Shown piece after piece: positions 3 to 10,224 of a stretch of DNA of 10,224 bases. The notes below the pieces were generated by a model that was given only the letters and a program-made list of their open reading frames with translations, was not told where the DNA came from and ran no database searches. Made by a program: the position numbers and the translations under genes. The stretch is taken from contig MU621562.1 of the NCBI GenBank assembly GCA_025399215.1, positions 1-10,224 on the forward strand. Reading direction: 5' to 3'. Position 1 is the first letter of the stretch. The number at the start of each line of letters is the position of its first letter. Source of the DNA: Globomyces pollinis-pini (lineage: Eukaryota > Chytridiomycota > Chytridiomycetes > Rhizophydiales > Globomycetaceae).

Positions 3-1544
3 TCATTTTGTTTCAGTCTTCAACTGCATCACATTCTGTGTCAATTTTTGTAAAATTGTACCCAAACGAGACGAGATAAATATATTCAACTGTGAGTGTA
101 TCGTGATAAGCGTGCAATTTATTGTCACTACCGACGCATAACTTAAATCATTACCTATACGTGTTAGACACAAATTCAGTTTACCAAGAATATCCGTGTT
201 AGTTTGAATATAATTGATTATAAAGAATAAGATACAAATCAAGATTTGAATGATAATTCCAAAAGTGAATTTTAAATCTACAGTGAGAATATTACGCTGC
301 TTGGATGCTTGATTCAATTGGTATGTAACTAGAATTGGTGGTATAATATCGTATAGAAATACAAATAGATACCAAAATGGCATTGATCTGGTCCAATATA
401 TGTAAGTGTCAAAAGTCATGCAATTCTTTGCCGCTGGGTTCCAACAAATTCCAAAATAAAATGAACCTGCTAATCCACAATGCAATAATAGGATAACACA
501 ACATACAGTATACTTGAACCGCAGTGTAGGTGCGGGCCTCATTATACCAAAAACGGTAGAAGTGGTCAACATTACTGTCAAGAATGTAGCAACATTTTGC
601 AACAAACAGACAAATTCTAGAATAAAATATTGAGTATCAACATCAGGTAATGCAGTTAATGCATAATATCCAGCAGAGAAATTTGATAGTAACCAGAAAA
701 AAAATGTGATGATTGATAACAGTAGGAATCTTCTTTTGACCTTGAAGTATCGATAAACTGAATACGCTAATATGATCACATCACCAGTTACAGATGCATA
801 GATGCACACATACTGTAGACGATCCCAAATATTATCACGAGTTGGAATAGCTAAATAAGTGGGCATGTACGTTATCCAAGATATCTGAATTTTGTTCTCA
901 CCCCCTTTTAGAATCCGACCCACAATCATTTCATTCGGACGCATTTCAAATGCCAACGGTTCGAAATGTAATGCCACATTGAGTAACTCACCTAAGGTAA
1001 ATGAATTATTCTACCAACCTTGACAACCAGACTCTGTAAAGATACTGACAGTACCATTTTTAGAGCATTGATATTTATCATAGCAGATATTGTCATTTAA
1101 CAAATAAATTGCATCGTAACCATTTACAAGATTGAATCCATCACTCTGCAATATGCAATAGGTACCACCAGCTGCATATTGGTTCATTGCATATTCCAAA
1201 TCATTATCCGGAACTACCATTGCTGACCCACTAGCAATTCCAAAAGAAGATTGGAAATCTAAGGTAGAAACGCAACAATCATGAACCAAATCTATAGATA
1301 ACGTTCCACAATAACCTATCGGAAACTCTTCAACCGTAAATTGATAGAAATCCGGCCACGTTTCATTTAATGGTTGTTGCATTGCTAATAAATCGTTTAT
1401 TTGGAATAGATACATTGTTGTTGGAGGTGAAATGCATTCTATTTTATGCTGGTATTGTACCTGTAAAACACTGTACGCTTTAGTGAAGTTTAATAAAGTG
1501 AGTAGAATCAAATTAAGCTGCAGATTATGTAGGTTGGGGAACAT
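3..1544 (-). CDS. Seven-transmembrane receptor-like protein with Cys-rich ectodomain
   Basis: Two exons, complement(1019..1544) and complement(3..991), are joined across a 27-nt intron (992..1018, phase 1). The intron carries an in-frame TAG; splicing gives 504 aa. The ATG at 1544 starts a hydrophobic signal peptide (about residues 1-24). The secreted-looking ectodomain that follows has eight cysteines (37, 79, 90, 91, 130, 154, 160, 174) and N-glycosylation sequons at N60 and N163. Seven hydrophobic spans lie near 236-258, 264-287, 298-325, 336-358, 380-401, 416-437 and 459-481, followed by a short polar tail of about 23 residues. This is GPCR-like topology, with the N-terminus predicted outside. 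I see no DRY or NPxxY motif, so it is not a recognisable rhodopsin-class receptor; it resembles uncharacterised 7TM proteins I associate with chytrid fungi. Ligand and signalling partner are unknown. The stop TGA is at 3-5, so the gene is complete here. Confidence 0.75.
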
Positions 1545-1566
1545 GCGAACAGAAAACGCGACCTAA

Positions 1567-1822
1567 AATTTTACGCTTTATATTATCACAGCTCAAGTGG
1601 TTAAAGGGAAGAGTGCATCATTAAATGCTTTACGTGATCCATTTAAGTATGATTGCTCGAATGATGGTGAAAGGTGTTTTAAAACCAATGAATAATGATG
1701 ATGGTGGTGTATGTCTAAGAACATTCCACATAGCTTGTAAGTCAGAGACCAATAATGCCCATCTTTTGAGCTCCAATGACCTCACAATTACCGAAAACTG
1801 TCGTCATTGTGTTCAATTTTGA
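1567..1822 (+). pseudogene. Frameshifted coding-like relic, Cys-containing, unknown family
   Basis: Two overlapping open frames look like one broken protein. Frame A is open from 1567 to a TAA at 1693-1695 and ends with 'YDCSNDGERCFKTNE'. Frame B, through the NDDGG-coding stretch at about 1691-1705 to the TGA at 1820-1822, continues with 'VCLRTFHIACKSETNN' and ends in 'ENCRHCVQF'. The switch point lies in a low-complexity aatgaataatgatgatggtggtg run, where slippage indels are easy. Frame A has no ATG, so the 5' end would be lost, or lie under the divergent 7TM gene only 23 bp away. The even cysteine spacing suggests a secreted domain, but I recognise no family. It could equally be chance ORFs in a promoter. 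Confidence 0.25.
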
Positions 1823-1994
1823 AACAGACCTCTTTGGATGTCATGTCAAGTTACAACATATTGCGTGTTTGGTAAAATATTTACATCACATAATTCGAGA
1901 ATGTTATTGCTTTTACTGACGCTCGGATAATTTCATTTCATCGATCGATTCTTTGTTTCAAAGGAGTTCAGAGTTGCGATTGTTTGGTGGAGTG

Positions 1995-2200
1995 ATGGGT
2001 TCTAAATCCCGATCTGGAATGTCGGCTCGCATATGGAAATATCCCACGTCTCATGTACCCTTAATTGGTTAGTATGAAATTTCTAATTCGGCTTCATTGT
2101 ATCATCCAAAAAAAATATGGGTCGTATTTTCGTTTGAGGTTGTTCTTTGTCTTCTTTGGTTGGGTTTAGCATTAAGTTTATAACCAAAGGATACATATAG
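1995..2200 (+). CDS. Possible small single-TM mitochondrial-type protein (doubtful)
   Basis: An ATG at 1995 opens a 25-codon frame (begins MGSKSRSGMSARIWKYP) that stops at TAG 2070-2072. Splicing from GT at 2068 to AG at 2138 would extend it through a hydrophobic segment (2139-2200) to a total of 44 aa. The basic start followed by 'HVPLIG' and one hydrophobic helix faintly recalls the B12D/NDUFA4 (MLRQ) family of small respiratory-chain proteins. Against it, the intron would be 71 nt, well outside the 25-41 nt range of every well-supported intron in this window, and the product would be shorter than that family. A GTATGT donor right after the last codons (2199) could lead to further exons. 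Treat as a hypothesis. Confidence 0.15.
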
Positions 2201-2472
2201 TATGTCGAAAACTCGTTCGGATATGTTTAGTTCAAGTATTTCACTGCTCAATTAGTGCAAGGCCGTTTCATAAATGTTTCACCACCGTGTATATCTTTGT
2301 TTCTGAAGTTTCTAGTTTCTTCAGCGATGATTATTCAAAGTTGAATGTTAATTCAGCATAACTGTCTGGTATCACAATTCATTTAATCTACACATGCCAC
2401 TTTCAGGATGATGATGTCGGATAAACGTAGCTGCGCCACTTGTTTTACTAGGGTCTTTGTTTCAAGTGAACA

Positions 2473-2480
2473 TATAAATA
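2473..2480 (+). promoter_or_regulatory. TATA-like box (TATAAATA) before the permease gene
   Basis: TATAAATA lies 27 nt before the ATG at 2508. It matches the TATA consensus, but at this distance it would leave almost no 5' UTR if it acted at the usual 25-30 nt from the transcription start. It may therefore be only AT-rich sequence. Confidence 0.25.
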
Positions 2481-2507
2481 TCTTAGATTACCATCAGTGC
2501 AATCATA

Positions 2508-3961
2508 ATGTCCAAGGAAATACAAGAAAAAGAAATCGAGGTAGAGACTGAAAATCAGAAGTTTTCCAACAAGACTATCGCTGCCATTTGTGGAATTGCT
2601 TTACTCTCAGATGGTTACGTCAATAACTCTGTTGGTTCTGTCACTAGTATTTTGAAAAGACAGTATCCTGCCGAAGCAAAGACGGCCAAGGCATTTACAT
2701 ACATCACTTCATGGACTTATTTGGGCACTATCTTTGGTATGTTGGCCTTTGGGACAATCGCAGATGTATTTGGTCGTAAAGCTGGAATGATTAGCGCGAA
2801 TCTATTGCTGATTCTTTTTACTTTGGGCTGCGCAGTTTCTTTCAGTCCAAATGGTACCCCAGAAGGTTTATTTTGGATGTTGGTCGTGTTTAGAACGTTA
2901 CTGGGAGTTGCGATTGGTGCTGAGTATCCAACTGGTTCCGTTGCTGCAAGTGAATCTACTCAGACAAGTGGTGGTGCTGGACAATCTATCTTTGTGTTGG
3001 TGACCAGTTGTGCGTGTGATAGTGGATTTGTCTTGTCTGCTTTTGTTACTTATATATTTGCTTCTATTTTTGGTGAAGGTCGACTTGAATTGATTTGGAG
3101 ATTAACTATCGGATTTGGAATAATCATCCCTACATCAATTCTTTGGTTTCGTGTGCAAATCCATGAAGAGAAGGGCGAGAAAGAAATCAAAATCCCATAC
3201 ACTTTAATCTTCAAGAAGTATTGGCCAAATTTATTTGCCTGTTCTGCCATTTGGTTCCTTTACGAGTAAGTTTTTTCTATTATCTCATTCAAAGTATTGT
3301 TTGCTATCCAGTTGCCAATTATGCATCCGTCATCACCGAAGCTGTCTTACCTGCCAATGCACCATTAGCAGATGCGTACTTTTGGGAAACTATTACGTTT
3401 TTGTTTTATATCCCAGGGGCAATTGGTGGTGCTTATTTGACACCAAACACTGTTTTGGGTCCTAGAAACACACTTATTCTTGGTTTTTTCTTGCAAGCAG
3501 TCTGTGGATGCATTTTGTACTTTTGGTACGTGGATATTTCCAAATCAGTTGGTGTATTTACTATATTCTTTGGTTTGTTTTTGTCGTTTGGAGAACTTGG
3601 GCCTGGAGATAGTGTATACCTGATTTCATCTTCATCTTGCCCATCCTCAGTTCGAGGTCGTTTCTTTGGAATTGCTTCAGCAGTTGGTAAAGTAGGCGCG
3701 TATGTTGGGTCTCAATACTTTCGAGATATTCAAAAATGGTTCGGAAATGGTGACGAAACAAGTATTGATGGCAAACGTGGATTCTTTTTGTTTGCTGCTG
3801 GAATCAATGTGATTGGAATTTTAATTGCATTCTTTTTGATTGCCAACTTTAGTGAAACTATTGTTGAAGAAGAAGACGAAGCATTTAAAAAGTATATTAT
3901 CGAAGAAGGTTATACTTTGGAAGAATTTGGACTAGAAGAAAAGAAAAAGATTGATTTATAG
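2508..3961 (+). CDS. GIT1: GIT1-like MFS permease (glycerophosphodiester/phosphate transporter)
   Basis: Exons 2508..3265 and 3295..3961 join across a 29-nt intron (GTAAGT...AAAG, 3266..3294, phase 2), giving 474 aa. Splicing creates 'IWFLYDIVCYPV', the WFLYD motif typical of the phosphate/glycerophosphodiester branch of the major facilitator superfamily; the unspliced frame stops after 'WFLYE'. Other family marks are D86-x-x-G-R-K91 in the loop after the second helix, GAEYPTG at 137-143 and GELGPGD at 352-358 followed by 'VRGRFFGIASAVGKVGAYVG'. The hydrophobic pattern fits 12 helices with cytosolic ends: an acidic/lysine-rich N-terminus and a charged tail ending KKKIDL. Git1-type proteins import glycerophosphoinositol or glycerophosphocholine at the plasma membrane as phosphate and lipid-precursor sources. 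A proton-coupled phosphate transporter of the Pho84 kind is the main alternative. The ATG has an A at -3. Confidence 0.87.
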
Positions 3962-4040
3962 TCGCTATTTATTTAGATTTTAATAATATAATTTGATCAA
4001 GTCCTTGAACAAGAGAGCATTAAACCTTCTGATACCTCAC

Positions 4041-4147
4041 TTCTCACGTCGTTCTAATTTCTCACACCTGGCACTGATGATTTTCTAATTTCTCACTTGC
4101 TGATAACGAAGATTTTTCAATTTCTCACCATGCCATTGGTGATTTTT
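4041..4147. repeat. Degenerate tandem array of CTAATTTCTCAC ... GATTTTT units
   Basis: Three imperfect units of about 31, 33 and 30 nt run head to tail: 4054-4084, 4085-4117 and 4118-4147. Each opens with CTAATTTCTCAC (CAATTTCTCAC in the third) and closes with GATTTT or GATTTTT. A fourth TTCTCAC stands at 4041-4047. The middles differ in sequence. The array ends about 40 nt before the earlier possible start (4186) and 150 nt before the start chosen here (4298) of the exonuclease gene. It could hold transcription-factor sites, 3' UTR signals of the permease, or be plain microsatellite-like decay. Confidence 0.7.
4125..4142. repeat. Perfect inverted repeat TCACCA-tgccat-TGGTGA
   Basis: Six-base arms flank a six-base spacer, overlapping the last TTCTCAC unit. 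It could be a dimeric protein-binding site or a weak hairpin. The other array units do not carry a matching palindrome, so it is specific to the third copy. Confidence 0.6.
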
Positions 4148-4185
4148 AGATAAATAATTTCTTAAACTGTGATTCGACAACGAAA

Positions 4186-4297
4186 ATGTTTGCCCATCAA
4201 GGTAACACTTACCAGTTCACTTATACCAGTAATATCAGCAAGAAGGTCGTTGACTTATCTTACCCGCAAATTTATCTTTCACAAACATTACACTATC
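4186..4297 (+). other. Possible upstream coding exons (N-terminal extension) of the exonuclease
   Basis: ATG at 4186 opens a 16-nt exon (4186-4201, MFAHQ+G). It is followed by a GTAACA...CCAG intron of 28 nt (4202-4229), then 68 open nucleotides in frame with the ATG at 4298. Use of this start would add 28 residues (MFAHQVISARRSLTYLTRKF, then IFHKHYTI) containing several R/K and no acidic residue, like a mitochondrial targeting peptide. The intron length and donor match the rest of the window. The total would become 641 aa. Confidence 0.4.
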
Positions 4298-6334
4298 ATG
4301 AGCTGTTCTGAGAGTGACTGTTCAGACGACTACCGAATTTCCAAATATGATCGATTATTCACCCCCTTTGATAAAGCCGAAACGATCGAAGTATTAAAGT
4401 AATTGAAATAATGTTGATTGCCTTTGTTTATATTGTCAGATGTTATTTTGATATACCACGATTAACATCCAAACGTACCATGGAATTTCCAAAAGAGCTG
4501 CCATTCAAATTTAGTCTGGCTTTGATACTGAATACGAAATTCCCAGTTCAAACTGTATTTCAATTGATTGAAGAGATTTCGATTTCTAATTTTGATCAAC
4601 CTTTCAAGGTAATTAGGACCTTTATTTATTTATCGTACATTAGAAACGCTTTGTGAAATCCTTTGTATCGCTTTTGGAGGCAGTCTTGTTACGAAATCAA
4701 AGTGAATCATTTCTATTGGGAACTATTCTTAAAACCTTACCATACCATAAACATTATGTGAATGCGGAAGAGTTTTGGAATGCTCAAGATAAAGCTTATG
4801 CATCTCAACGGGTTGAATTTTTAAGAATGCTAAATTCACCCAAATTCAGTTACTGGTTTGCCAATGATGCTAATTTACGATCGCAGGATTATCTACTTTA
4901 TTCCAGCTTTTAAAATCCGCTTAGCACCACCAATACCAGATTGTAATGATCAACCTTGTTGTTCTGTTTCTGAAACAACTATACTTTTGGAACGACTATA
5001 CACTGAAGAAGCGTACATGGAATATGCATCATTAATTTCAAGCCATAACCTACATGATCTAGTAGATATGGTTGCCGTTGTATACAGTAATTTTGAAGAG
5101 TGCCACTAACATCAAGAATTTGTAGAAGGGAATCATATACAAATCTTAAATGCATTAACGAAAAGTTCAAATTTGCCGAGAGTGATAGCAATTATAGAAG
5201 ATGAATGTCACAAATATCTAACAGATCAAAGCTATCAACTGAATAGATTTCGATTTTTTTCTATGGCAGGAAAGGTTGCCAATAAACTTTTGAAAGCACC
5301 AGATAATATAAAGAATTATCCGGCTGCATTTTTGTCCTTTTCTATTCCAGTTGCATTATGGATGGTAAATTTGATAAAACCGGTCATCAACACACCAGGA
5401 AACCCATTATTTGATACCAATGAAATTTGTTTAGGGTATGTGGATCGCATCGAATTTTTTCTCTTATCAATACCAGAAGTACATATATTTGATCATCCAA
5501 AAAAGCCTTTAGAAATGCGTTCGATGTTGTTTAAACTAACTTGTGACAAACTTTATGGCTTAGGCCTTTCAATTTATGGAGATGAACTATGTAACCGATT
5601 TGATGATCAGTATGTATGCAAGAGACAGCCAAGCAATTTGGTTTTATATCCAGTGACTGCAAATTCTACATCCACCGAGTATTATACATCAGTGGCCGAA
5701 ATTCATTTCATTGATAGTAAAGAAAAGGTGTCAGAATTAATTGACTATATCCGCCTTTTAAAAATCAAAATAGTGTCAATTGATTGTGAATGGACCAATG
5801 TTGCTTTAAGCATATGTCAACTATGTGTGCAATTTTCAAATGATGAACGGCAAACCTACATTCTTGATATGATTAGTCTAAAAGAACAAGATTTGATGCC
5901 GTTATTAGAAATGTTATGGAGAGCCCCATTATTCATTGGTATTGATTGATATGCATCTAACCAAAAGGATTCTCGTGCCAACAAGATTTTTCAAAAATCC
6001 ATGCCATTTGTCCATTGATTGGAACTCCAGATAATCTATTTGATATTTCACATGTAAAACTACAAGATTTTGGCATGCCATTAACAAAAAAAGGCTTACT
6101 TAGTCTGGATATCTATACCCAGATGACCTTAAAAAAGTCGATTGATAAACGACCAAGAATGACATGCTGGGAAAAACGGCCACTTCGATCAGTTCAACTA
6201 TTGTATGCAGGTTGGCTTATTTATATTAATCATTACTAGCTGGAGATGTGGAAGTACTATTAGACATTTTCATTGCGCTTCAACGCATCAATCCATCTTT
6301 ACTACCAGAAGAAATTGAACATCAACCCCAATAA
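4298..6334 (+). CDS. MUT-7/EXD3-like DEDDy 3'-5' exonuclease
   Basis: Seven exons (4298..4398, 4440..4608, 4644..4855, 4887..5086, 5117..5938, 5968..6210, 6240..6334) give 613 aa. The six introns are 41, 35, 31, 30, 29 and 29 nt; several have CTAAC-like branch sites (for example at 5105-5109 and 5957-5961). The C-terminal RNase D-type domain keeps all catalytic residues: motif I 'SIDCEW' (D450, E452), motif II 'GFSCQQDFSKI' (D508) and motif III 'YAAGD' (Y581, D585). 'RPLRSVQLLYA' before motif III is typical of mut-7/EXD3. The first 400 residues are weakly conserved and look helical. The protein ends 28 residues after motif III, so the C-terminal Mut7-C domain of the animal proteins is absent. 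The family trims RNA 3' ends and in worms acts in small-RNA silencing; the role here is inferred. Intron 3 uses a weak GTTTGC donor. The start is chosen as the first ATG in the long frame; an upstream start is possible. Confidence 0.87.
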
Positions 6335-6335
6335 A
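6330..6335 (+). terminator. AATAAA polyadenylation-type hexamer overlapping the exonuclease stop codon
   Basis: AATAAA contains the TAA stop (6332-6334). If used as the cleavage signal it would place the poly(A) site about 10-30 nt downstream and leave a very short 3' UTR, in keeping with compact genes. T-rich sequence follows. Confidence 0.35.
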
Positions 6336-6776
6336 CATTTTTGTTTGCAATTAATAGAGACGTTGCGTAAAAATTTCTTCACGTTTTTACATATTCGAAT
6401 GTCGGCATTTTTTAATTTCCAATCACTTTTGATGGTCATTCTATTGATTGTAATTGAGGAATAAGGATTTAACGATTAGATTTGCACTTGTACATATTTG
6501 AAAGCACAAGTATTTTAAACATTCAATTAAACTGGTAATAGTTTCCATCTTTGATCACCAACCAAAAAGGAGCAATGGGATTATTTTGGAAAGCTTCAAG
6601 GATAGGTTGATAAAGTGTATTAATTATTAGGGGAACGTTTATCACCATACGTATCACTCTGCTGTGTCATTATGGCATTGAAATTACTATTTGCTGATTC
6701 TTAAAATAAATACTAATACAATAAGTCTCTACTTTTGAAGTTTTTTGTCGTTGACTTTCTTTACTTTTCATTTCTG
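6335..6776. other. Spacer between exonuclease and AP-2 mu genes
   Basis: AT-rich sequence that includes the AP-2 mu promoter. The only coding-like stretch I see is a 41-codon minus-strand ORF at 6523-6648. The last 50 nt before the AP-2 ATG are pyrimidine-rich on the plus strand, as often near fungal starts. No RNA gene was seen. Confidence 0.5.
6523..6648 (-). CDS. Possible small protein or terminal exon (41 codons), unknown
   Basis: From ATG at 6648 to TGA at 6523 the frame is open and protein-like, containing 'LYQPILEAFQNNPIAPFWLV' and ending 'IKDGNYYQFN'. It could be a complete 41-aa protein. It could also be the last exon of a gene starting at ATG 6671 (MTQQSDTYGDK), joined by an intron ending at the AAG near 6594, since a short intron there keeps the 'FQNNPIAPFW' frame. 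I do not recognise the family. The location between two plus-strand genes, 130 nt from the AP-2 start, would need a divergent promoter. Chance remains a real possibility. Confidence 0.25.
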   Translation of the reverse strand: MVINVPLIINTLYQPILEAFQNNPIAPFWLVIKDGNYYQFN

Positions 6777-8349
6777 ATGCTCAGTGCGTTGTTGATAGTG
6801 AATGCCAAGGGTGATGTGCTCATTAGTCGGTCTTACAAGAAGGATATCAAGTAAAATACAATTATTTAACCTTCCCAGAAGAAATGTATCAGATATGTTT
6901 AGAAGTATTTGTTGATTATTAACGCGAGCTCAGTTCATGTTATATCAAACAGTGATATTCGATCTCCTGTTACTACAATCGATAAGCACACTTTCTATCA
7001 TGTTAAAAACGAAAACATATTTCTAGTTGCTGTATCAAACGCTAATCCAAATGCTTGTATGGTGTTTGAATTCCTATACAAAATAATCACTTTGGGAAAT
7101 AGTTATTTTCAAGTATTAAATGAAGACAGCGTCAAAAGCAATTTTACTTTGATATATGAATTGTTTGATGGTAACTTTACCGAATCAAAATTGACTTGAA
7201 TTAGAAATTTGTGACTTTGGAGTTCCTCAAACAACTGAAGCTGATACACGTTTGGAGCATACGAATTACTAACTGGTTTAGTTAAATTGTATATTACAAC
7301 AGAAAGTGTTCAATCTGGAAAAGGACAGGTAATATTTACCACTTAATACTTTAGAGTGACCTTGATGGTTCCAAGATCGCAATACAAGCAACTGGAGCTG
7401 TTAGTTGGAGAAGAGCAGATATCAAGTATAGAAAGAACGAAGCCTTTGTAGATGTTATTGAAAGTATTAACCTTATTGTTTCTGCCAAAGGTAATCCTTT
7501 CAAATCTTTAATATTACAAGGTACTATATTAAGGTCAGATGCATCTGGACAAGTGATTATGCGATCTTATTTGTAATCTTTTAATTATTCATCTTAAGGT
7601 CGGGGATGCCAGAATGTAAATTTGGATTAAATGACAAAGTGATGATTGAAACACAAGCTGGAGATCGTCCTGTCAAAACCACAGCCCAAGTTGAACTCGA
7701 TGATTGCCAGTTTCACCAGTGTGTTAAATTGGGAAAGTTTGATGCTGAAAAGGTTATCAATTTCATCCCACCAGATGGAGAGTTTGAATTGATGAAGTAT
7801 AAATACTGTTGATAACTTTTAGGTATCGAACAACAGAAAATATTAGTGTCCCATTCAAAGTTCGAGCAATTGTTAATGAGGTGTCCTCCAATCGCGTAGA
7901 GTTTAAAGTGAACGTTCGATCAAACTATTCTTCAAAAATATTCGCTCAAAACATTGTTATCAAAATTCCCACACCTTTAAATACAGCTTCCACAAAGATA
8001 TCAGTAAATGGCGGCAAAGCAAAATATGTTGGAAGCGAAAACTGCTTTGTTTGGAAGTACTACTTATTGCTTTAAGATTTTAGAGTTGCAAAATTTCAAG
8101 GTGGAGAAGAAATTTCATTTAGTGCTGTTGCCGATTTGACAGTTTTAAACACAAAAAAGATATGGAGTAGACCGCCAATTAGTTTAGATTTTCAAGTAAG
8201 GATTCCAATACTAAAATTAGGTTATTATGTTCACCGCATCTGGCCTAGTAGTAAGGTTCCTAAAGATTTTCGAGAAGAGCAACTATCAAAGTGTCAAGTG
8301 GGTTCGATACATGACAAAGGCAGGATCATATCAGATTCGCGTAAATTAA
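6777..8349 (+). CDS. apm4: AP-2 clathrin adaptor complex, mu subunit (Apm4/AP2M1)
   Basis: Eleven exons (6777..6850, 6879..6904, 6934..7170, 7205..7249, 7282..7328, 7355..7490, 7521..7572, 7599..7796, 7823..8056, 8084..8195, 8221..8349) give 429 aa; the human protein has 435. Ten introns are 28, 29, 34, 32, 26, 30, 26, 26, 27 and 25 nt, all GT...AG. The longin domain occupies about 1-141, starting [20 protein letters not shown], with '[11 protein letters not shown]' and 'VFEFLYK'. The mu-homology domain runs from about 170 to the end, with '[11 protein letters not shown]', '[15 protein letters not shown]', 'IPTPLNT' and C-terminal '[17 protein letters not shown]'. T156 sits in 'IAIQATG', the AAK1/Ark1-type kinase site; F174 and D176 match the human YxxPhi-cargo pocket, and W414 matches human W421. 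The protein recruits cargo to clathrin pits at the plasma membrane together with the alpha, beta and sigma chains. 'RSPV' and the C-terminus separate it from AP-1 mu. Confidence 0.95.
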
Positions 8350-8435
8350 ATGATTTAACTTTTTAGTTTTAGTGGCACAAAGCTTTAGATGTATTCATTA
8401 TTCCTAGATGGATAGATTATAATTTCAACAAGTAT

Positions 8436-8441
8436 AATAAA
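8436..8441 (+). terminator. AATAAA hexamer downstream of AP-2 mu
   Basis: This AATAAA lies 87 nt after the AP-2 mu stop, just before the ankyrin remnant, and is a plausible polyadenylation signal. AT-rich sequence makes chance matches common. Confidence 0.35.
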
Positions 8442-8454
8442 AATTGTTCATCTG

Positions 8455-8900
8455 AGTACAGTTGTATTGAACGAAGATCCAGTGGATTAACCCTTCTGCA
8501 GTTGATGACTGCGCAATCAGATTAGCTTCAGAAAAAGGACATGCTGCAGTAGTACAGTTGCTATTGATGGATGAACGAGTTAACCCATCCGCAATGGATA
8601 ACTATTCATAATATGGGCATCCTGAGAAGGGCACACCGAATTAGTTAAGCTGTGGTTGGGAAATGAAAGAGTGGACCCAACAGCAAATAATAATTATGCA
8701 ATCAGATGGTCTTCCAAGAATGGACATTCTGAAATGGTGAAGATATTGTTAATTGATGAACGCGTCTATCCCTCTGCAGAAAATAGTTATACTCTTAAAT
8801 GGGCTACCAGAAAGGGATATTTGGATATAATCCAAATGCGGTTGACCATTACCGAGTGGATTGTAATGGTTGCCTTATAAAGTTGTTACTCAAAAAATAA
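8455..8900 (+). pseudogene. Decayed ankyrin-repeat gene, tandem relative of the downstream gene
   Basis: About four to five ankyrin units of the RVDPSA...IRWAS.NGH..VVK.LL type can be read, but in three frames. The first half-unit (from about 8455) hits TAA at 8488. The second unit ('CAIRLASEKGHAAVVQLLLM') is in another frame and ends at TAA 8609. The third and fourth units ('GHTELVKLWLGNERVDPTA', 'NYAIRWSSKNGHSEMVKILL') follow a TGA at 8623. A one-base loss near 8840-8846 shifts the tail, which ends 'DCNGCLIKLLLKK' at TAA 8898-8900. Short introns cannot rescue it: no GT occurs across the lesion between 8583 and 8636 apart from the conserved repeat itself, and the repeat consensus is present on both sides. 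No F-box start is recognisable in 8350-8454. It is probably an older tandem copy left upstream of the intact gene. Confidence 0.85.
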
Positions 8901-9100: not shown

Positions 9101-10224
9101 ATGAACAGCTTACCTAACCAGGTGGAGATTAGAAAAAATTACATAGAAAGACTTCCAGTTGAAATCAAACAAATCATCGTAAATTACCTTCCTATTAATT
9201 CATTGGTCGAGTTCAAATTGTGTTCAAAAGACTTCAACTACAACTACAGTCTTGCCCAAATTCAACTGGTTCAACTGTATTGTAGCAAGACGCTGTTCAA
9301 TAATGCCTCTGCGTTTAAACGTTATTTGCATTTCAAAGAACCAAAGGCAATTGATCTTAAAGAGGTACTCAACAAACAAAAGACTGACATTGTGTGGATT
9401 TTGCTGAAAGATGGCAGATTGGACCCTTCTAGAGATGATAATTATGCCATCAGATGGGCTTCTGAAAATGGTCATACGCAAATAGTAAAAATGTTACTTG
9501 AAAATGAACGAGTAGATCCTTCTGCAGACCACAATCAAGCCATCAGACGGGCTTCCAAAAAGGGTCATACTGAAATAGTCAAAATGTTGTTGGAAGATGA
9601 TCGAGTAGATCCTTCCAGTTTCTCTAATGATCCCATCACATACGCTTCCCGAAACGGCCATACGCAAATAGTAAAGATGTTACTTGAAAATCAACGAGTG
9701 GACCTAACTGCAGGTGGTAATTATGCCATTAGATGTGCTTCCGAAGAAGGCCACGCTGAAGTTGTAAAGATTCTTTTGGAAGATGAACGACTGGATCCTT
9801 CTGTAGACAATCATCATACCATTCGATTAGCTTCCGAAAATGGCCACGCTGAAGTAGTAAAGATTCTTTTAGGAGATAAGCGAGTAGATCCTTCTATGGA
9901 CAATAATCATGCTATTCGATTAGCTTCCGAAAATGGCCACGCTGAAGTAGTAAAGATTCTTTTAGGAGATAAACGAGTAGATCCTTCTGCAGACAATAAT
10001 CATGCCATTCGACTGGCTCTCAAAAATGGCCATACCGAAGTGTTAAAGATTCTTTTGAAAGATGCACGAGTAGACCCCTTTGCAAATGAAAAACTTCCCG
10101 TCCGATTGGCTTCCAAAAATGGCCTTAATGAAGTCGTAAATTTGTTACCCAATGATAAAAATGATAAACAGTATGACCGCTCTTTATATTATAATCGTTT
10201 ACTCCAATTGACTTCCGAATATGG
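9101..10224 (+). CDS. F-box and ankyrin-repeat protein (3' partial)
   Basis: ATG at 9101 opens a frame that runs without a stop to the window end: 374 codons, C-terminus missing. Residues 15-46 ('IERLPVEIKQIIVNYLPINS' followed by LVEFKLCSKDF) match an F-box-like helix bundle, the Skp1-binding part of SCF ubiquitin ligases. From residue 106 to 353 there are eight ankyrin-type repeats of exactly 31 residues (93 nt), two shorter than the canonical 33. Their consensus is RVDPSADNN.AIRLASENGH.EVVKILL.D. Repeat 8 is degenerate (GLNEVV, LLPND) and is followed by a non-repeat segment (QYDRSLYYNRLLQLTSEY). Repeats 5 to 7 are nearly identical in DNA. F-box plus ankyrin suggests a substrate adaptor, but the target is unknown and some F-box-like starts do not bind Skp1. 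No intron is needed. Expanded fungal families of this design are common. Confidence 0.88.
   Translation, partial: MNSLPNQVEIRKNYIERLPVEIKQIIVNYLPINSLVEFKLCSKDFNYNYSLAQIQLVQLYCSKTLFNNASAFKRYLHFKEPKAIDLKEVLNKQKTDIVWILLKDGRLDPSRDDNYAIRWASENGHTQIVKMLLENERVDPSADHNQAIRRASKKGHTEIVKMLLEDDRVDPSSFSNDPITYASRNGHTQIVKMLLENQRVDLTAGGNYAIRCASEEGHAEVVKILLEDERLDPSVDNHHTIRLASENGHAEVVKILLGDKRVDPSMDNNHAIRLASENGHAEVVKILLGDKRVDPSADNNHAIRLALKNGHTEVLKILLKDARVDPFANEKLPVRLASKNGLNEVVNLLPNDKNDKQYDRSLYYNRLLQLTSEY
9821..10006 (+). repeat. Near-identical 93-nt tandem ankyrin units
   Basis: The segment beginning at 9821 (ATTCGATTAGCTTCC) recurs at 9914 with exact 93-nt spacing. The first 59 bases are identical; after one G/A difference (9880 versus 9973) the next 15 match again, then ATG replaces GCA (9896-9898 versus 9989-9991). 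The silent third-position identity points to a recent duplication or gene conversion of one repeat unit. Confidence 0.9.

What the first reader, a model, noticed from the sequence alone, without database searches (positions are those of the whole stretch)
992..8220. Ultra-short introns throughout: 18 introns of 25-41 nt
Every intron needed to restore a conserved protein is 25-41 nt (mean about 30): one in the 7TM gene, one in the permease, six in the exonuclease, ten in AP-2 mu. Donors are mostly GTAA/GTAT, but GTTTGG, GTTTGC, GTTGGC and GTTGGT also occur. Many have a CTAAC/TTAAC-like branch site within 6-15 nt of the AG. This is near the known lower limit for spliceosomal introns and well below the usual fungal 50-80 nt, so ordinary gene finders would report these genes as broken. 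It implies a spliceosome adapted to intron definition over tiny distances.
Basis: partly seen in the sequence, partly recalled or inferred. Interest (0 to 1): 0.75.

Follow-up and report, generated by a model that had tools for sequence, protein, structure and literature searches.

The report
Chytrid genome full of ~28-nt introns
This DNA comes from the chytrid fungus Globomyces pollinis-pini, whose genes really are cut up by spliceosomal introns mostly only about 25-35 bases long, a size best known from a few protists and far below the usual fungal size.

Summary
Two more were missed: 155-184 (-, 30 nt, 7TM gene) and 8341-8366 (26 nt, AP-2 mu). Homology or deposited protein models support 19 of these 20; the 41-nt one (4399-4439) is not in the deposited model. 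The window is contig C456 of an 18.55-Mb assembly; matching deposited proteins name it Globomyces pollinis-pini (Chytridiomycota).

The feature is genome-wide. A gene finder with a flat 12-200 nt length prior on 250 kb gave 649 introns; 403 are 24-35 nt, with a sharp mode at 28-29. Five false splice-signal sets gave no peak. Longer introns exist (77 and 70 nt in AP-1 mu); their share is not fixed. Where a branch motif is seen it lies about 8 nt from the 3' end and 19 nt from the donor, far under the ~52 nt computed for the human B complex. Changed assembly geometry is implied, not shown.

The claim that gene finders would call these genes broken fails for AP-2 mu, deposited spliced exactly so. 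Kind: known (Paramecium-like); a new member, not found described, in an intron-rich fungus.

The parts
   Evidence: spliced reading; relatives P0122-P0125; no Pfam family
992..1018 (-). intron, 27 nt, donor GTTGGT
   Evidence: junction CQG|E matches paralogues P0122 and P0124
   Evidence: P0122-P0125 lack the encoded 10 residues; coordinates
2508..3961 (+). MFS permease gene with 1 intron
   Evidence: PF00083/PF07690
3266..3294 (+). intron, 29 nt, GTAAGT
   Evidence: MFS_1 match 62-391 spans the junction at about residue 253
4298..6334 (+). 3'-5' exonuclease gene (deposited model starts at 4411)
   Evidence: PF01612; deposited P0121
4399..4439 (+). putative intron, 41 nt; not in the deposited model, least secure
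   Evidence: deposited model starts at ATG 4411 inside it
4609..4643 (+). intron, 35 nt
4856..4886 (+). intron, 31 nt, donor GTTTGC
5087..5116 (+). intron, 30 nt, CTAAC branch, in-frame stop
5939..5967 (+). intron, 29 nt, CTAAC branch
   Evidence: lies inside the PF01612 match
6211..6239 (+). intron, 29 nt, donor GTTGGC
   Evidence: lies inside the PF01612 match
6777..8372 (+). AP-2 complex mu subunit gene, 12 exons, 11 introns
6851..6878 (+). intron, 28 nt
6905..6933 (+). intron, 29 nt
7171..7204 (+). intron, 34 nt
7250..7281 (+). intron, 32 nt, donor GTTTGG, CTAAC branch
7329..7354 (+). intron, 26 nt
7491..7520 (+). intron, 30 nt, 3n without stop
7573..7598 (+). intron, 26 nt
7797..7822 (+). 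intron, 26 nt
8057..8083 (+). intron, 27 nt
8196..8220 (+). intron, 25 nt, shortest in the window
   Evidence: deposited P0001 and Terramyces P0002 end QIRF; coordinates

Best explanation
These are ordinary U2-type spliceosomal introns that have been shortened, across the genome, mostly to a narrow band of about 24-35 nt (mode 28-29) in the chytrid Globomyces pollinis-pini. Each intron is little more than its signals: donor GTA(A/T) (or GTT, then mostly with G at +5 making up for the lost A at +3), about 19 nt to a branch A in a YTAAY-like motif, about 8 nt to (T)AG, and no strong pyrimidine tract. Shown from sequence: the introns, their lengths, the signals, the genome-wide mode, a class of longer introns of unknown share, and a canonical U2 snRNA. 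Inferred: that they are removed by a conventional spliceosome whose early complexes tolerate a 5'SS-branch distance that human complexes do not, through shorter U6/5'SS and U2/branch helices or step-wise U1-then-U2 occupancy; and that the sharp lower edge is the functional minimum of this spliceosome while deletion bias presses lengths down to it.
For: Window introns.

Genome-wide: with a flat 12-200 nt prior, 649 introns in 250 kb (window included). 381 are 25-34 nt, against 17-45 in the same bins for five decoy dinucleotide pairs. Donor (GTAWGW) to branch/AG spacing in 200 kb (window included): 20 observed vs 4.3 expected at 25-34 nt; at longer spacings the 5-nt bins stay near expectation (highest 5 vs 3.3 at 70-74).

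Homology outside the window: 23 introns that I counted as lying at least 5 residues inside Pfam matches of five predicted proteins, all 23-34 nt; 7 of 9 AP-1 mu introns at 27-35 nt.

Branch: YTAAY at 6-15 nt from the 3' end in 152 of 376 predicted introns vs 5.9% of random 28-mers; 119 of the 152 have 17-21 nt before the A.

Donor dependency: +5 G in 28 of 38 GTT donors vs 94 of 365 others; in the window 4 of 4 vs 2 of 15.

Canonical U2 with GTAGTA box. U2AF large-subunit-like gene at C16:47098-48225 (see against).

Geometry: the human B complex needs at least ~52 nt between 5'SS and branch site (PMC6692369 passages).
Against: No transcript data were available; splicing itself is inferred. The splice-site matrices of the gene finder were seeded with 17 window introns and retrained on its own calls, so only its length prior is neutral; it recovered exactly 10 of the 17 supported plus-strand window introns (all 17 in its seed set), merged some neighbours into false long introns, and cannot see introns over 200 nt. 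Longer introns are real (77 and 70 nt in AP-1 mu). About 60% of predicted introns lack a strict YTAAY.

Some other donor patterns show chance-like excesses at long spacing (GTTTG[GC] 6 vs 1.0 at 95-99; GTAAG 5 vs 1.7 at 115-119; GTTGG[TC] 3 vs 0 at 100-104). Reversed-pattern controls of the whole-genome searches had more hits than the pattern (1370 vs 405; 1477 vs 302), so only the length shape is evidence.

U1 and U6 were not found: the family searches scored only 41-47 candidates, and two recalled U6 patterns had no match. All 16 U2AF_lg matches were below the family cut-off, and 2 of 14 control genomes also rang.
Confidence: 0.95

Rival explanations
1. The segments are sequencing or assembly indels, or the genes are decaying pseudogenes; removing GT..AG stretches is a hand-made repair.
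For: Most segments break the reading frame or add residues, and by eye the next-door ankyrin-like stretch at 8440-8880 looks broken by stops.
Against: Every segment is GT..AG, 25-41 nt, often with a branch motif near the AG; the spliced AP-2 mu keeps full-length conservation; the same lengths come up across the genome but not with decoy signals.
Confidence: 0.02
2. Short introns are a local or gene-class oddity (for example only adaptor genes), with normal 50-80 nt introns dominant elsewhere in the genome.
For: AP-1 mu has introns of 77 and 70 nt; long predicted introns carry branch motifs somewhat more often (63 of 211) than six decoy long classes (14-28%).
Against: Flat-prior gene finding peaks at 28-29 nt with no second peak; counts above 40 nt (211) lie within the decoy range (162-385); 23 of 23 Pfam-interior introns in five unrelated genes are 23-34 nt.
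Confidence: 0.03
3. The introns are removed without the spliceosome, for instance as tRNA-like, group II-like or transposon-derived self-removing elements.
For: They are shorter than a human-type B complex is thought to accommodate (PMC6692369).
Against: Canonical donor, branch and acceptor signals, all three intron phases (160, 120, 96), an intact U2 branch-pairing box; 25-30 nt leaves no room for a ribozyme (general knowledge).
Confidence: 0.01

Closest known systems
Paramecium (P. tetraurelia, P. bursaria) ultra-short introns
   Same: Genome-wide, tens of thousands, narrow band; median 24-25 nt (PMC12862383 passages)
   Different: Fungus, not ciliate; mode 28-29 nt; a class of introns of 70-77 nt also seen
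Heterotrich (Stentor) 15-16 nt, mikrocytid 16-17 nt and chlorarachniophyte nucleomorph 18-21 nt introns
   Same: Narrow length band, explained there by a functional minimum (PMC10245619 section 7)
   Different: About 10 nt longer here, with a degenerate donor (top hexamer GTAATT only 29 of 403); M. mackini (224 introns) and the nucleomorph (over 800) have hundreds of introns, this genome by extrapolation about 30,000
Short introns of other fungi (Cryptococcus neoformans mean 63 nt; Blastocladiella emersonii mostly 60-79 nt)
   Same: Fungal introns; Cryptococcus is intron-rich too
   Different: About half the length (PMC8476143 section 14; PMC2773782 passages, stress-retained introns)
Human short introns that need SMU1/RED
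   Same: Short 5'SS-branch distance as the limiting feature (PMC6692369 passages)
   Different: Human minimum about 50 nt; here about 19 nt. RED_N and RED_C gave no match, but neither did MFAP1, so the search is uninformative

Membership tests
U2-type spliceosomal introns | GT..AG ends | tested here: met
   18 of 18 in the window plus the 2 missed ones; the finder's main runs allowed only GT..AG, so rarer end types were not looked for, save as decoys
U2-type spliceosomal introns | branch motif complementary to the U2 GUAGUA box near the 3' end | tested here: met
   YTAAY in 152 of 376 predicted introns vs 5.9% of random 28-mers; U2 with GTAGTA. 224 of 376 lack a strict YTAAY
U2-type spliceosomal introns | removed as lariats from transcripts | not testable with these tools
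   no RNA data held
Genome-wide ultra-short-intron eukaryotes | dominant length class well under 40 nt across the genome | tested here: met
   403 of 649 flat-prior introns at 24-35 nt, mode 28-29; five decoy sets without peak; sample 250 kb of 18.55 Mb
Genome-wide ultra-short-intron eukaryotes | long introns absent or rare | tested here: inconclusive
   2 of 32 homology-supported introns outside the window are over 40 nt (70 and 77 nt); excess above 40 nt not resolvable from decoys
Paramecium-type introns | depletion of stopless 3n introns (recalled from the literature, no call) | tested here: inconclusive
   10 stopless 3n introns predicted against 86 stopless non-3n, but the finder can read through the former; two supported ones exist in the window (7491-7520, 155-184)
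Human-like SMU1/RED-dependent short-intron splicing | RED gene present | tested here: inconclusive
   no match for RED_N or RED_C; the MFAP1 comparison was also negative

The most novel reading that the evidence does not exclude
An intron-rich fungus (about 30,000 introns by extrapolation) runs nearly all splicing over a 5'SS-branch distance of about 19 nt, less than the 31 nt taken up by the U6/5'SS and U2/branch helices alone in the human B complex. Its spliceosome must then form shorter helices or occupy the two sites one after the other, a change that arose within the chytrids, whose other members I expect (not checked here) to have ordinary fungal intron sizes.
Probability: 0.4. Interest if true: 0.75.

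Novelty: new member of a known kind. Interest (0 to 1): 0.55.

Why it matters
In the papers seen here, minimal introns are described in ciliates, mikrocytids and nucleomorphs. A chytrid with a dense set of ~28-nt introns would give a lineage in the same kingdom as the well-studied yeast spliceosomes in which to ask how U1 and U2 fit on so short an intron, and when intron length collapsed (Terramyces and Globomyces sp. JEL0801 are near relatives with deposited proteins). In practice, annotation and RNA-seq settings with a minimum intron of 30-50 nt would lose many junctions here.

Tried and rejected
U6 (family, and two patterns recalled by me) and U1: no match. RED_N, RED_C, MFAP1: no match, judged uninformative because all three failed. 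Rfam scan of L013-L026 (14 stretches): 0 matches. Paper searches for chytrid or Globomyces intron lengths gave no statement on intron length in this species in what I saw; of the 6 papers holding 'Globomyces' and 'intron' I read passages of two, and most other listed papers only in the listing.

Considered and rejected: broken genes or indels; a local oddity; non-spliceosomal removal. Also rejected, after AP-1 mu, was my own interim view that all introns of the genome are 24-36 nt. In AP-1 mu the finder's 59-nt call left seven extra residues against the PDB chain; by eye I extended it to 77 nt, and the re-spliced reading was not aligned again. Its sixth intron (28 nt) leaves a two-residue difference at the junction. 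The finder misplaced window introns too (e.g. one 102-nt call for two AP-2 mu introns), so its single calls are not proof, only its distribution. Stop-bearing introns show no 3n bias (101, 95, 84 for mod 1, 0, 2).

Rows and choices: the histogram uses the first 100 of 405 matches (two pairs of rows overlap). One search uses 376 of the 403 introns (genes with an ATG start). The five proteins were picked by me from 24 candidates (14 printed) because they looked conserved; four introns within 5 residues of a match end were left out (29, 20, 190, 174 nt; I judge the last two wrong), and others outside any match, among them calls of 65 and 84 nt, are untested. Introns in genes under 300 nt of coding, or overlapped by a longer gene on the other strand, were dropped before the counts.
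Full report
What was checked. Lengths are 25-41 nt, mean 29.7, median 29; all begin GT and end AG; phases are mixed; four are multiples of three.

Independent support in the window. A protein search with the spliced AP-2 mu returned a deposited protein of Globomyces pollinis-pini, 428 aa, from a contig of 10224 bp, the window's length. It is letter-identical to my reading except at the end, where it reads QIRF instead of QIRVN. The PDB AP-2 mu chain 2bp5_M aligns over residues 1-427 with a few gaps of one to three residues. The exonuclease returned one deposited protein, P0121, which carries introns 2-6 exactly but starts inside the 41-nt intron 1. The 41-nt intron, the longest of the set, therefore has no support beyond an open upstream reading frame. 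The 7TM protein has four relatives, all in the genus. P0122 and P0124 read through and confirm the 992-1018 junction (..CQG|E..); all four lack ten residues that the window's frame would encode further on, which reveals a second 7TM intron at 155-184 (minus strand, 30 nt, a multiple of three without a stop, CTAAC branch). The permease intron lies inside one MFS_1 match. So the window holds 20 introns, 19 of them supported.

Organism. Taxonomy places Globomyces pollinis-pini in Globomycetaceae, Rhizophydiales, Chytridiomycota. The window is all of contig C456 of an assembly of 18,547,825 bases in 459 contigs.

Is it genome-wide? Three lines. (a) In 200 kb (19 stretches and the window), the spacing from GTAWGW donors to YTAAY...YAG was 20 observed against 4.3 expected at 25-34 nt; longer 5-nt bins stay near expectation (highest 5 against 3.3 at 70-74). 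Three of the four other donor patterns run show scattered excesses at long spacing (6 against 1.0 at 95-99 for GTTTG[GC], 5 against 1.7 at 115-119 for GTAAG, 3 against 0 at 100-104 for GTTGG[TC]), which I read as chance. (b) Over the whole genome, GTAWGT..YTAAC..YAG with total length 20-59 nt had 405 matches; of the first 100 listed, 68 are 24-35 nt long where a flat spread would give 34. The tool's reversed-pattern control had more matches (1370), as it did for the 51-90 nt pattern (1477 against 302), so only the shape of the length distribution counts. (c) A gene finder with a flat length prior of 12-200 nt was run on 25 stretches, the window among them, 250,224 bases. Its splice matrices were seeded with 17 window introns and retrained on its own calls. 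It gave 649 introns; 403 are 24-35 nt, with counts of 68 at 28 nt and 60 at 29 nt, falling to 9 at 35 and 4 at 36. Five runs with false splice dinucleotides gave 17-45 introns in the 25-34 nt bins, against 381 for GT-AG, and no peak. On the 17 supported plus-strand window introns it was exact for 10. Scaled up, the 403 correspond to roughly 30,000 short introns in the assembly, a rough figure.

The longer tail. Homology outside the window tests the finder. In AP-1 mu (locus L002, aligned with PDB 4hmy_M), nine introns measure 27, 77, 28, 35, 29, 28, 70, 32 and 31 nt; the 77 nt rest on my correction, by eye, of a 59-nt call. In five further predicted proteins, 23 introns lie at least five residues inside Pfam matches and measure 23-34 nt (positions, matches, counted by me). 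So 30 of 32 homology-supported introns outside the window are 35 nt or less and 2 of 32 are longer; the sample was picked, not random. A run in which introns over 40 nt had false signals, in six versions, gave 162-385 long calls against 211 for GT-AG; branch motifs were in 63 of 211 real long calls against 14-28% of decoy ones. A class of longer introns therefore exists; its share could not be fixed.

Anatomy. In predicted 24-35 nt introns, 360 of 403 donors have A at +3, 38 T and 5 G. Those with T have G at +5 in 28 of 38 cases, the others in 94 of 365. In the window's 19 supported introns it is 4 of 4 against 2 of 15 (p = 0.004). Acceptors are TAG in 322 of 403. YTAAY occurs 6-15 nt from the 3' end in 152 of 376 (random 28-mers 5.9%), and 119 of those 152 have 17-21 nt before the branch A. 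T makes up 47-53% at -6 to -4 against 38-46% at -20 to -12, so there is at most a weak pyrimidine stretch. Among 280 stop-bearing introns, lengths are not biased against multiples of three.

Machinery. One U2 snRNA was found, 135.4 bits, with the branch-pairing GTAGTA. A U2AF large-subunit-like gene lies at C16:47098-48225 (best piece E = 2.3e-26); no piece reaches the family cut-off, and 2 of 14 control genomes also gave matches to this family. U1 and U6 were not found; the family searches score few candidates, my U6 patterns were recalled, and the genes may be missing from the assembly. RED and MFAP1 gave nothing, which is uninformative.

How it most likely works. The U2-type spliceosome removes introns reduced to their signals. 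In the human B complex the U6/5'SS helix takes 17 nt and the U2/branch helix 14 nt, with about 21 nt between them, so that at least about 52 nt are needed (PMC6692369, passages read). Here about 19 nt are available. A human-like B complex cannot span this without change. Shorter helices or step-wise occupancy of the two sites are my inference; nothing here tests them. The narrow band with a sharp lower edge fits the published idea of deletion bias against a functional minimum (PMC10245619, section 7 read).

Comparison. Paramecium (median 24-25 nt; PMC12862383, passages) is the closest in length and abundance. Stentor, mikrocytids and nucleomorphs are shorter (PMC10245619). Fungal figures seen are far longer: mean 63 nt in Cryptococcus (PMC8476143, section 14) and mostly 60-79 nt among stress-retained introns of Blastocladiella (PMC2773782, passages). 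PMC8476143 had two Chytridiomycota species and does not mention Globomyces. Passages of three papers naming Globomyces (PMC9698843, PMC13391722, PMC11797018) say nothing on its intron length; passages of PMC5364385, PMC12204190, PMC11649378 and PMC9505925 gave no chytrid intron lengths either. The nine paper searches named under Tried and rejected showed me no report of it. The length statistics may well be visible on the genome's MycoCosm page (recalled; not seen). Intron lengths of close relatives were not available here, so where in the chytrids the shortening arose is open.

Verdict. It is a new and, as far as these searches show, undescribed member of a known kind, with good value as a fungal system for minimal-intron splicing.

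Noticed in passing
window 8440-8880 and 9102-10224 (+): By eye, an F-box/ankyrin-type repeat gene runs off the contig end at 9102-10224, and a second, apparently broken ankyrin-like stretch with stops lies just upstream at about 8440-8880 (no family search made).
   Followed up: no
window 4298-6334 (+): The exonuclease protein returned only its own deposited copy (1 hit among 6945 scored candidates; a word-based search of limited reach), although it has a clear PF01612 domain at residues 425-598; the long N-terminal part matched no Pfam family.
   Followed up: partly
window 3-1544 (-): The 7TM protein returned 4 hits, all Globomyces (P0122-P0125), and no Pfam family; no deposited copy identical to the window's own was returned.
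   Followed up: partly
donors genome-wide (window 992, 4856, 6211, 7250): 5' splice sites with T at +3 mostly carry G at +5 (28 of 38 predicted, 4 of 4 in the window), a dependency between two donor positions.
   Followed up: yes
G000 whole assembly: U6 snRNA could not be found by family or by two recalled conserved patterns, and U1 not by family, while U2 was found at once; unassembled, intron-split or divergent genes are possible.
   Followed up: partly
L002 (minus strand), AP-1 mu gene: Two introns of 77 nt (GTGAGT) and 70 nt stand among seven of 27-35 nt in the same gene, so a longer class coexists.
   Followed up: yes
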